A program made the position numbers and the translations under genes. From the NCBI GenBank assembly GCA_016866755.1, contig VGLK01000001.1, positions 244,028-308,027 on the forward strand: a stretch of 64,000 nucleotides of DNA, read 5' to 3'. The stretch comes from Candidatus Saccharimonadota bacterium. GTDB taxonomy: Bacteria > Patescibacteriota > Saccharimonadia > Saccharimonadales > Saccharimonadaceae. The notes beneath the pieces were generated by a model. It did no database searches. It had not been told where the DNA came from and saw nothing but the letters and a program-made list of their open reading frames with translations. Of this stretch, positions 31,220 to 64,000 are shown in pieces; positions within the stretch are counted from its first letter, which is position 1, and each line of letters opens with the position of its first letter.

Positions 31220-31493
31220 AAATTTGCTTACAGTATTATACCATAATCTAATTTGTGCAGCAATTTTGAGGGGCTTGAAACAGCAAGCGATACAGTGTAT
31301 AGTTAGCATTGACATTACCAAAGACAGTAGCTGCATATTATGCTTAATTCGCTACCGAGGATTCACTTATAATCTTGGTCTTTACGTGGTGTGGAGTTTT
31401 TTCGTCTCTATGGGCTTTAAATAACCGCATCATGAATGTTGCTCGTTTACAATTTGGTCACGAAACACGTATCAATCAAAGAAAGGGAATTTT

Positions 31494-52521: not shown

Positions 52522-52596
52522 TGGGATGTGGCCAAGTGGTAAGGCACTGGGTTCTGGTTCCAGCATTCGGGGGTTCGAATCCCTCCATCCCAGCCA
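52522..52596 (+). tRNA. tRNA-Gln (anticodon CTG)
   Basis: Acceptor TGGGATG/CATCCCA, D-arm with GGCCAAGTGGTAAGGC, anticodon arm CTGGG-TTCTGGT-TCCAG giving CTG, T-arm GGGGGTTCGAATCCCTC, discriminator G and encoded CCA (52594-52596). TAAACT at 52505-52510 is a possible -10. A hairpin follows. Confidence 0.93.
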
Positions 52597-62900: not shown

Positions 62901-63365
62901 AATTGTTTTATTGGCGATGCGCATATTAGCGGCGCACTCGATCTTGTCGATCTCTCACCAACAGACAAGTTAGCGCGTATTACCGACTACAAAACGGGGA
63001 AGTCGCTTGCCGACTGGAAAGGTAAATCTATGTATGACAAGGTTAAACTTCATACATATCGTCGTCAACTTGGTTTTTACCAGCTGCTGCTGGCAACCTC
63101 TCGAGATTACCGCAACTACCACACCGAGGACTTACGCATTTCATTTGTCGAACCGCTCAATCTGCACGCACCCGAAGCTACTTTTAGCGAACTTTCAACT
63201 ACATTTAACCGCGATGAACTTGCGCGCTTAGAGCAACTTATTCGCGCAGTGTGGCACTGTATTTGTCGTGCCGATTTTCCAAATACGAGTGAATATGACC
63301 CAACTCTCGATGGCATACTAGCATTCGAAGATGCAGTAATAAAGAAGTATATTGACACTTTGTAA
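59973..63365 (+). CDS. UvrD/AddA-type helicase with C-terminal RecB-like nuclease domain
   Basis: A 1130-residue SF1A helicase: Walker A AGPGTGKT at 29-36, motif II VDEFQDTN (about 327), GDDDQAIYSFQG motif III, and late motifs TAHKSKGLEFD and FVAMTRAKQQL. The C-terminal domain (about 860-1080) has GALDLVD then DYKTGKS (about 1005), the D..(D/E)xK site of Cas4/RecB nucleases, but no flanking Cys for an iron-sulfur cluster are evident. It would process double-strand ends. The frame opens at 59886, yet TATACT (59960-59965) leaves 7 nt to ATG 59973. No AddB partner is adjacent. Confidence 0.92.
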   Translation: MSYQSRYAMLNSAQKHAVDTIEGPVLVIAGPGTGKTELLGMRVASILKKTDSLPENILCLTFTDSGAQAMRERLKSIIGKDAYRVAIHTFHSFGSEIINHNSEYFYQGADFQAANELTTYQILRDIFSELPYSSPLSSTNNGDYVYLNEAKNIISELKRSGLTSEELLLVLAANEAFIETVEPALSEIFSARISKSTAESLRVFAQHKPALLAQSSPLPAGLSLLQELFFAALERSLSDYDSLGKTTPITAFKNKWFEKNSLGQIVFSDRKRNLKLREMAAIYRLYQDKNLEERLYDFDDMILRVVQALTTHADLRFNLQEKYHYIMVDEFQDTNLAQMRIIENLTDNELYEGRPNIMAVGDDDQAIYSFQGADINNIHSFTNLFTRPEIITLTDNYRSVESVLSHARQVITQSSERIETLLSSVNKTLTAHRQHSAAEVSLHEYPSIHEERHAIVEQISHQLADPNHTGDIAVLARRHKELIELLPYFAANNIPVIYERQDNVLEQEPVSQLLALAKILQAVLHGNENLASELIAKLITHPAWGYAPEQIIKLSIHAYKERKSWLEVMGEMGEFTALYSWITAMAVKATNDPLEYILDELMGAPTPAILATAQAATASDKTDEPFDEHNTAATATEFTSPLYNYFFSDERRTAASDDYITHLDSLRTIRQKLREYTNRTEKPTLVELIEFIELHEEMKAPIKRLAQHGDTNQSGVHLMTAHKSKGLEFDTVYIINATDANWGEKAQTRPRLISYPANLPLETAGSSISERIRLFFVAMTRAKQQLRLSYGLSDDADKATLPASFLVDVELEAQNKSAFASDVLARKTRSELAWYAPILAIPQPTLESVLVPRLSSYALSATDLNAFLDVTNGGPQAFLVDKLLRFPRHSGPQAAYGTAIHFAIQKAHAHFSATKEYRPLEDSLHDFQSQLEKSHLRDHELQEYTRRGIATLEKFLPAKQSTFSTGQKVELSFAHQNCFIGDAHISGALDLVDLSPTDKLARITDYKTGKSLADWKGKSMYDKVKLHTYRRQLGFYQLLLATSRDYRNYHTEDLRISFVEPLNLHAPEATFSELSTTFNRDELARLEQLIRAVWHCICRADFPNTSEYDPTLDGILAFEDAVIKKYIDTL

Positions 63366-63380
63366 ACTCACGTTTATAAT
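63352..63380 (+). promoter_or_regulatory. Perfect consensus promoter at the end of the helicase gene
   Basis: TTGACA at 63352-63357, exactly 17 nt, TATAAT at 63375-63380: the ideal sigma-70 promoter. The -35 overlaps the helicase stop region. It predicts a start near 63387 and fits a strongly expressed stable RNA. Confidence 0.85.
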
Positions 63381-63386
63381 AATAAA

Positions 63387-63960
63387 TTGTACAGTTCTTG
63401 AGGCGGTGCGTTATGGCGAGTGGTCTACACAACTCCCTATATTGCACCATCTCCTGTACGCACTTTGACAGGAATATTGCATAAGAACCCCGAGATGACC
63501 AGGTAATCCATTTCCCCGGATAACCAGGCGCCGCTATCTTACTAGCAGGCGAGACCTCGGGTAATCATCAATCGTCCAACGACGTACGATGATGGTCCCC
63601 AGAGAGTGACAGACGTGCATTTTGTGTCCCCCCGGGCACGCGCACGGCTGATTGCTTTCGGCGGCGGCACACGCTATTAGTGTCACCGCTTTAGGGGCTA
63701 GCGGGTTATAGCTTAATGGTAAAGCCCGCTTCCTTCTGGGGGGAAGAAGCGCGATGCAGGTTCGATTCCTGCTAACCCGACGGTATCTCTTGTGGTTGAA
63801 TCGCAGCCTCGTAGCGGATAAGCCCGCTATTAGAGCTGTAGAAATCCTCCTTTTAAAAGAGATACAAGTTGTGGGCCTCGTATGCGCCGGCATGTTTGGC
63901 TGGTAGCGCGGGGCCCACAGCGTCCCACTTTTAGCTAATTCAACCAGAAGGGAAGTGGTC
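63387..63960 (+). ncRNA. Large structured RNA or leader with embedded tRNA-like element
   Basis: About 575 GC-rich bases with no supported ORF. Domain 1: GTACAG/CTGTAC (63389-63394, 63454-63459) enclosing GAG/CTC, GGTGC/GCACC and GAGT/ACTC. Domain 2: CCCGAG/CTCGGG (63489-63494, 63556-63561) closing two hairpins, GGTAATCC/GGATAACC and CGCC-GCTA/TAGC-GGCG. Domain 3: CATC-ATCGT/ACGAT-GATG (63566-63594). Domain 4: GTGACA/TGTCAC (63606-63611, 63681-63686). Then a tRNA-like element, then GTATCTCTT/AAGAGATAC (63783-63791, 63857-63865) crossed by TGGTTGAAT/ATTCAACCA (63793-63801, 63938-63946), a 9-bp pseudoknot, and GTGGGCC/GGCCCAC. Pairings are read by eye. The 3' end is not known. Confidence 0.7.
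63702..63779 (+). other. tRNA-like element with extended anticodon hairpin
   Basis: Acceptor CGGGTTA/TAACCCG (7 bp), D-stem GCTT/AAGC with AATGGTA loop, and T-stem GCAGG/CCTGC with loop TTCGATT are all canonical. The anticodon stem CGCTT/AAGCG closes 15 nt, in which CTTC/GAAG pair again, leaving loop TGGGGG, so there is no 7-nt anticodon loop. The 3' end reads A-CGG, not CCA. The body recalls tRNA-Gly. It is probably a tRNA mimic within the larger RNA, less likely a decayed or intron-containing tRNA gene. Confidence 0.7.
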
Positions 63961-63963
63961 ATC

Positions 63964-64000
63964 GTGACCGCTGGCAATCAGGGCAACGCTTTCAAGGCGG
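63964..64000 (+). CDS. Start of a GC-rich ORF running off the window
   Basis: GTG at 63964 preceded by AGAAGGGAAG as SD, opening MTAGNQGNAFKA before the window ends. The SD lies inside a possible hairpin CCACTT/AAGTGG (63925-63930, 63953-63958) next to the pseudoknot strand, so the structured RNA could act as its leader. Product unknown. Confidence 0.45.
   Translation, partial: MTAGNQGNAFKA

What the first reader, a model, noticed from the sequence alone, without database searches (positions are those of the whole stretch)
63352..63963. Candidate large ornate RNA with embedded tRNA mimic and 9-bp pseudoknot
A perfect TTGACA-17-TATAAT promoter drives about 575 nt with no supported ORF and about 60 percent GC (36 of 60 bases at 63601-63660). 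Complementary segments nest consistently: a 70-nt three-helix domain, a three-way junction closed by CCCGAG/CTCGGG, and a 9-bp stem GTATCTCTT/AAGAGATAC crossed by a perfect 9-bp TGGTTGAAT/ATTCAACCA pseudoknot. A near-complete tRNA fold lies inside. Size, multibranch layout, pseudoknot and internal tRNA recall GOLLD/ROOL-type giant RNAs (established classes), but I see no recognised conserved core, so it may be a new class or a very long mRNA leader.
Basis: partly seen in the sequence, partly recalled or inferred. Interest (0 to 1): 0.88.

Follow-up and report, generated by a model that had tools for sequence, protein, structure and literature searches.

The report
Stem-clamped messenger RNA with tRNA mimic
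This stretch is the front part of a roughly 870-letter RNA gene that is predicted to fold into one elaborate, end-clamped and likely protein-coding RNA; relatives in the same bacterial group carry the same clamp around unrelated tiny reading frames, some also with tRNA look-alikes, and the RNA and protein family catalogues searched here do not list it.

Summary
In detail: perfect TTGACA-17-TATAAT, a very structured RNA (z -7.5; -9.0 for the full unit) and a tRNA-like fold. The reading changes. The window stops at a contig end; the next contig overlaps it by 137 nt and continues the gene. There lie a 55-codon frame (start 63964, mostly outside the window), the 3' strand of a 14-bp stem pairing back to 63467-63480, and a hairpin. 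Rfam finds only the tRNA. In relatives (Saccharibacteria by the named matches) the same uvrD-dus gap often holds the same frame: a long-range stem P1 (33 stems in 31 of 55 gaps) and a 3' hairpin P2, both with strong covariation, around a short frame from one of several unrelated families; one 95.8%-identical pair shows 15 synonymous and 1 non-synonymous codon changes. Twelve of 55 gaps hold tRNA-like folds, six of 14 with 2- or 4-nt anticodons. So this is most likely a clamped, structured mRNA for a small protein with an inserted ornate leader, not a GOLLD/ROOL-type noncoding RNA. The ornate domain here has no homologue, so its helices and pseudoknot are untested by covariation. Function is inferred.

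The parts
63352..63380 (+). promoter, TTGACA-17-TATAAT; start of transcription expected near 63386
   Evidence: start point inferred from spacing
63389..63459 (+). 5' hairpin P0 (GTACAG/CTGTAC ends)
   Evidence: fold of 63388-63460, z -4.45
63467..63480 (+). 5' strand of clamp P1, GACAGGAATATTGC; its 3' strand GCAATATTCCTGTC is at C3:329-342 (= 64192-64205 past the window end)
   Evidence: covariation in relatives
63482..63700 (+). ornate multibranch domain (includes CCCGAG/CTCGGG junction)
   Evidence: z -5.13; no homologue found, so helices untested by covariation
63702..63781 (+). tRNA-like fold; predicted long anticodon arm instead of 5 bp + 7 nt
63783..63946 (+). domain with the two crossing 9-bp complementarities (63783-63791/63857-63865 and 63793-63801/63938-63946) and the hairpin domain 63866-63935
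   Evidence: z -6.4 folded without the pseudoknot
63730..63739 (+). TTCCTTCTGG in the tRNA-like anticodon arm, complementary to CCAGAAGGGA at 63944-63953 over the ribosome-binding site
   Evidence: 1 of 60 shuffles as good
63946..63953 (+). Shine-Dalgarno-like AGAAGGGA
   Evidence: sequence
63964..64000 (+). first codons of the 55-codon frame, GTG start; continues on C3 to the stop at C3:268 (= 64131)
   Evidence: GC by codon position 0.51/0.49/0.91; stop to P1' 60 nt as in relatives
63864..64000 (+). 137-nt overlap with the start of contig C3, one mismatch at 63990; P2 hairpin follows at C3:343-393

Best explanation
This is the front two-thirds of one transcription unit that is predicted to be a clamped, highly structured messenger RNA: a long-range stem (P1) and a 3' hairpin (P2), both shown by covariation in relatives, embrace a likely translated 55-codon frame, and an inserted ornate leader with a tRNA-like fold would control that frame. 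Shown here: the promoter sequence, the contig join by a 137-nt overlap and by uvrD-dus order in relatives, P1 and P2 covariation, synonymous bias of the small frame in one close pair of relatives. Predicted: P1 plus P2 close off both ends and make the RNA long-lived. Inferred: translation is held back by structure over the ribosome-binding site (in this genome the tRNA-like anticodon arm or the neighbouring pseudoknot; in some relatives a small local hairpin), so the protein is made only when that structure opens. Inferred: the tRNA-like fold is not a decoding tRNA but a mimic, probably used for cutting by tRNA-processing enzymes or as a rigid insert.
For: Full unit 63387-64256 folds with z -9.0 (60 shuffles). 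P1: 21 distinct stems, 243 of 252 cells paired, 44 double changes over 9 of 12 pairs; with partners swapped between loci the maxima of 1000 trials are 216 and 22. P2: 22 rows, 14 of 17 pairs with double changes, 67 such cells against 21.6 shuffled, 93.7% paired against at most 47.4% when slid. Small frames in the gaps: 23 loci of one family, 11 of a CxxCC..CxxC..H..C family, 3 of a third; of 10 such proteins scanned, only a zinc-ribbon one reaches a curated cut-off. L119/L120: 15 synonymous, 1 non-synonymous codon change. Distance from stop to P1' 26-86 nt in 28 of 30 cassettes, 60 nt here. Of 32 hits of the two larger protein families, 25 lie between uvrD and dus, 3 after uvrD with dus outside the locus, 3 before dus with uvrD outside, 1 elsewhere. 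uvrD and dus named by Pfam. Own genome has an ordinary tmRNA and RNase P RNA.
Against: The protein of this genome matches none of the families (2.1 bits to the nearest) and has no homologue (none; own genome only; a shared short word in three viral loci; one plasmid match at E 4). Its ribosome-binding site is weak and about 11 nt from the chosen start. In 24 of 55 gaps no P1 was listed, P2 was not found by the script for 7 of 33 P1s, and model R1 hits only 30 of 392 order genomes. Long-range pairing over the ribosome-binding site passes in 3 of 22 cassettes, this one included, and in 0 of 7 before the script stopped, so it is not a family rule. P1 and P2 would also be seen in a noncoding RNA. 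R1 was built with this sequence in it, so its own hit is by construction. One close pair carries the codon argument; a second pair has 3 synonymous and 2 non-synonymous changes.
Confidence: 0.62

Rival explanations
1. A giant ornate noncoding RNA, working like GOLLD/ROOL by its own fold or as a multimer, with the small frame a bystander.
For: Size, z -9.0, embedded tRNA-like fold; in L119/L120 the ornate part changes less than the frame (6/281 against 18/147), though the rest of that gap is as quiet (7/250); no homologue of this genome's protein.
Against: No Rfam match beyond tRNA here or in 20 relatives; minimal relatives L062 and L074 are little more than P1, frame, P1'; frame families and synonymous bias; no phage match.
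Confidence: 0.2
2. A small mobile cassette: P1 strands are terminal inverted repeats of DNA, and the gap between uvrD and dus is an insertion hot spot.
For: Inner parts differ widely between genera; near-empty gaps exist (L065 50 nt, L102 30, L089 0); L050 and L079 hold two cassettes; in four genomes of other families the element sits elsewhere.
Against: Own genome has one R1 match; P1 spans are 143-955 nt and I saw no transposase-like frame in the list, though no family scan for one was run; flanks of P1 are unlike on the two sides in most rows (CCGTC only after the 3' strand), P1 differs fully in L061 and L086, and P2 covaries as RNA.
Confidence: 0.08
3. A leader that controls dus, the tRNA-dihydrouridine synthase gene next door, with the tRNA-like fold as a decoy for the enzyme and P2 as a terminator.
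For: dus follows directly; tRNA-like folds in 12 of 55 gaps; a sequence after the stop codon could pair with the P1'/P2 junction and oppose P2 in some relatives (8 of 26 at p 0.05 or less; 0.053 here).
Against: A TATAAT lies just before dus; 43 of 55 gaps have no tRNA call; in four genomes the element is not beside dus.
Confidence: 0.06

Closest known systems
GOLLD and ROOL RNAs (Rfam; 'Naturally ornate RNA-only complexes', PMC12286853, passages read)
   Same: Hundreds of nucleotides, multibranched; both classes are described there as often near tRNA islands.
   Different: No covariance-model match; chromosomal site beside uvrD-dus, no phage match; the conserved part is a clamp around a small frame.
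Type I toxin mRNAs such as hok and aapA1 (recalled, not searched)
   Same: Works alike in outline: 5'-3' long-range closure, structured ribosome-binding site, long-lived mRNA for a small protein.
   Different: The products read here are mostly polar or Cys-rich, not membrane peptides; no antisense RNA was looked for.
raiA and OLE RNAs (recalled)
   Same: Large structured bacterial RNAs of chromosomal loci.
   Different: No Rfam match; as recalled, those classes carry no frame inside.

Membership tests
GOLLD / ROOL | match to the Rfam covariance model | tested here: not met
   only tRNA reaches the gathering score among the features of this locus and 20 relatives
GOLLD / ROOL | phage or prophage location near tRNA islands | tested here: not met
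   no phage or plasmid match; flanks uvrD and dus; the tRNA-like fold is single and internal
GOLLD / ROOL | homo-oligomeric cage | not testable with these tools
   needs cryo-EM or mass photometry
tRNA gene (decoding) | five-bp anticodon stem with 7-nt loop | tested here: inconclusive
   ARAGORN reads CTG; lowest-energy fold has a long arm with GGGG loop; a regular tRNA-Gln(CTG) is at 52522-52596
tmRNA / RNase P | Rfam model match at this locus | tested here: not met
   both are found elsewhere in the genome, on C2
P1-P2 cassette of this report | P1 stem and P2 hairpin with a small frame ending 26-86 nt before P1' | tested here: met
   this sequence is one of the rows that define the set
small protein families A2, A3, F3 of the cassettes | profile match | tested here: not met
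   2.1, -1.8 and -0.8 bits
Type I toxin-antitoxin | antisense RNA and membrane-active peptide | not tested
   no expression data; the peptide here is polar by its sequence

The most novel reading that the evidence does not exclude
Saccharibacteria carry a private kind of gene: a covarying RNA clamp that holds exchangeable cargo, one small zinc-binding or helical protein plus a fast-changing ornate domain with tRNA mimics. RNA and protein act together, perhaps as a particle that meets the bacterial host or phages, and the cargo is swapped between species at a fixed site.
Probability: 0.25. Interest if true: 0.92.

Novelty: categorically new. Interest (0 to 1): 0.74.

Why it matters
If right, an RNA frame conserved by base pairing more than by letters has been missed because annotation sees only a long gap and a hypothetical 50-residue protein. 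It would give the Saccharibacteria a lineage-specific RNA-protein gene with interchangeable cargo, offer a natural series of tRNA mimics freed from decoding, and show how large ornate RNA domains arise as inserts in a small mRNA. Its parts (closing stem, terminator-like hairpin, ribosome-site hairpin, tRNA-like fold) are each known kinds; the combination is not one I can place.

Tried and rejected
Nucleotide homologues of this sequence: none in 60 relatives; in 391 other order genomes only matches of a few tens of bases, which I take for chance or the tRNA arm; none in phages or plasmids. Protein homologues of P0001: none (19, 25, 30; in 99 other genomes of 21), chance-level in 20 and 26. Reading L006 and scanning its two likes for tRNAs showed a chance shared word. 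Long-range pairing over the ribosome-binding site as a family rule: rejected (3 of 22; 0 of 7). Papers: searches listed nothing on such a locus, judged by titles and abstract beginnings; of one paper, PMC12286853, passages were read. Rows dropped: five of 33 P1s in another register (L061, L085, L121, L086, L074), leaving 28 rows, 21 distinct; P2 not found by the script for L052, L061, L079a, L137, L141 and sequence too short for L074, L121; three of 25 distinct P2s left out (L085, L086, L147); no stop listed for L061, L079a, L147. L085's P1 coordinates proved unsure and L052's P1 is short. Loci in which uvrD or dus was not found (such as L094, L095, L097, L098, L101, L104) were not counted as gaps. 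In one search the dus comparison of L119 and L120 was out of register and is not used.

Full report
What was checked. The region 63387-63963 is far more stable than its shuffles (z -7.5; reverse strand z -3.1). The two crossing 9-bp stems alone are weak evidence: 7% of 500 shuffles hold two or more such stems.

The unit is longer than the window. The window is G000:C1:244028-308027 and C1 ends at 308027. The first 137 bases of C3 repeat the last 137 of C1 with one mismatch, and one search found no third place in the genome, so C3 position p is window position 63863+p. Beyond the window edge lie a 55-codon frame (63964-64131), 60 nt of spacer, GCAATATTCCTGTC at 64192-64205 that pairs with 63467-63480 over 14 bp, and a hairpin at 64206-64256. 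One of 2000 shuffles has a perfect 14-bp stem. The whole 870-nt unit has z -9.0 against 60 shuffles. Then comes dus (Pfam Dus); the gene before the promoter is a UvrD-type helicase.

Relatives. The sequence has no nucleotide homologue (one search gives only matches of a few tens of bases). But the order uvrD, gap, dus is kept: the UvrD-like protein is found in 60 of 61 family genomes, and 64 loci hold both genes in order. Of 49 distinct gaps with this one, three are under 200 nt. Nine gaps from loci fetched separately were added to reach 55 gaps of 200 nt or more. In 15 of 55, this one included, none of 40 shuffles reaches the best long-range stem; in four of the 15 (L051, L052, L054, L120) that best stem is not the stem listed as P1. 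By eye and script I listed 33 P1 stems in 31 of the 55; 24 have none listed.

Covariation. P1 on 21 distinct stems: 243 of 252 cells paired, 44 double changes over 9 of 12 pairs; swapping partners between loci gives at most 216 and 22 in 1000 trials. P2 was found for 26 of 33 P1s. On 22 rows 14 of 17 pairs have double changes; all five measures exceed all 500 shuffles, and sliding the partners drops pairing from 93.7% to 47.4% or less. Between the close pair L119 and L120 one P2 pair changes from A-U to G-C. Rows are related, so counts are not independent events.

Cargo. Many gaps hold short frames with Shine-Dalgarno sites. Iterated profiles find one helical-looking family in 23 loci, a CxxCC..CxxC..H..C family in 11 and a third in 3 (run on frames of 30-130 codons in 55 gaps and five further loci). 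Of ten proteins scanned, only one, a zinc ribbon, reaches a curated cut-off. Searched in 218 family genomes each, the first two families hit 20 and 12 genomes, once each; 25 of these 32 lie between uvrD and dus, three after uvrD and three before dus with the other gene outside the locus, and one (L122) elsewhere. In the large protein database the Cys family has one match, identical to a row of the query, the helical family 51; the five with an organism name are Saccharibacteria or Saccharimonadales. The nearest named relative of the UvrD-like protein is also a Saccharibacteria MAG. That the window is from this group is inferred from these names. In one genus both families alternate, and two members have the third.

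The frame is coding in relatives: L119 against L120 has 15 synonymous and 1 non-synonymous codon changes; L153 against L154 has 3 and 2. In the first pair the frame changes most (18 of 147) and the ornate part little (6 of 281), but the stretch after P2 is as quiet (7 of 250), and uvrD has 72 of 900; in the second pair the first part of the ornate domain is fast (158 of 323). So constraint on the ornate part is suggested by one pair, not shown. The stop codon lies 26-86 nt before P1' in 28 of 30 cassettes, near-duplicates counted, 60 nt here. GC by codon position here is 0.51, 0.49, 0.91. Against this, the protein here scores 2.1 bits to the nearest family, so its place is by position only.

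tRNA mimics. ARAGORN tRNA-like folds in 12 of 55 gaps; six of the 14 have 2- or 4-nt anticodons, and A-starting anticodons such as aaa, agc and agg occur. That A-starting anticodons are rare in bacteria is recalled. The one here reads CTG to ARAGORN, while its lowest-energy fold has a long arm and an ordinary tRNA-Gln(CTG) lies at 52522. Part of its arm could pair with the ribosome-binding site; this is not a rule of the family (3 of 22). Some relatives have a local hairpin over that site instead, for example L052, L119, L138, L148, L153.

Range. The model R1 of P1' and P2, built from 22 rows with this one among them, hits 30 of 392 order genomes: 23 loci with uvrD and dus, one with uvrD only, two with dus only (own genome included), and four in other families with neither. 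Those four lie before or beside an ABC transporter (L255, L256, L264; Pfam for the last two and pheT in L255 and L264, the transporter of L255 by my reading) or a sodium/hydrogen-exchanger-type gene (L263), with P1 seen in three and frames of the same kinds by my reading of the sequence. In 379 genomes across the phylum only four hit, all of the same family. The own genome has one match.

Reading. The most economical account is a clamped mRNA with a variable ornate leader. Clamp and hairpin are supported by covariation; translation by codon evidence in relatives; stability, control and the use of the tRNA mimic are inferred. A possible opposing pairing between the spacer and the P1'/P2 junction (8 of 26 at p 0.05 or less) hints at a switch and deserves a test.

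Noticed in passing
window 31300-31412: Ribosomal protein L10 leader (Rfam 58.3 bits), an ordinary regulatory RNA.
   Followed up: no
L263, about 1652-1822 on the minus strand: Cys-rich small frame whose conserved residues are spread over two reading frames, either a frameshift in the gene, in the assembly, or recoding.
   Followed up: no
L050 and L079: Two P1 cassettes in one gap; one frame in each locus begins with a hydrophobic stretch that looks like a signal peptide by eye.
   Followed up: no
L052, L062, L119, L153 after P2: A second small frame often follows the cassette before dus, acidic by eye.
   Followed up: no
spacer between stop codon and P1' in many relatives: GACGGAC-like sequence complementary to the P1'/P2 junction, with matching letters in L074, L110, L111, L141 whose junctions differ; possible antiterminator-like switch.
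   Followed up: partly
L073 gap: The uvrD-dus gap holds a frame that looks like an ImmA/IrrE-type metalloprotease (recalled motif, not scanned).
   Followed up: no
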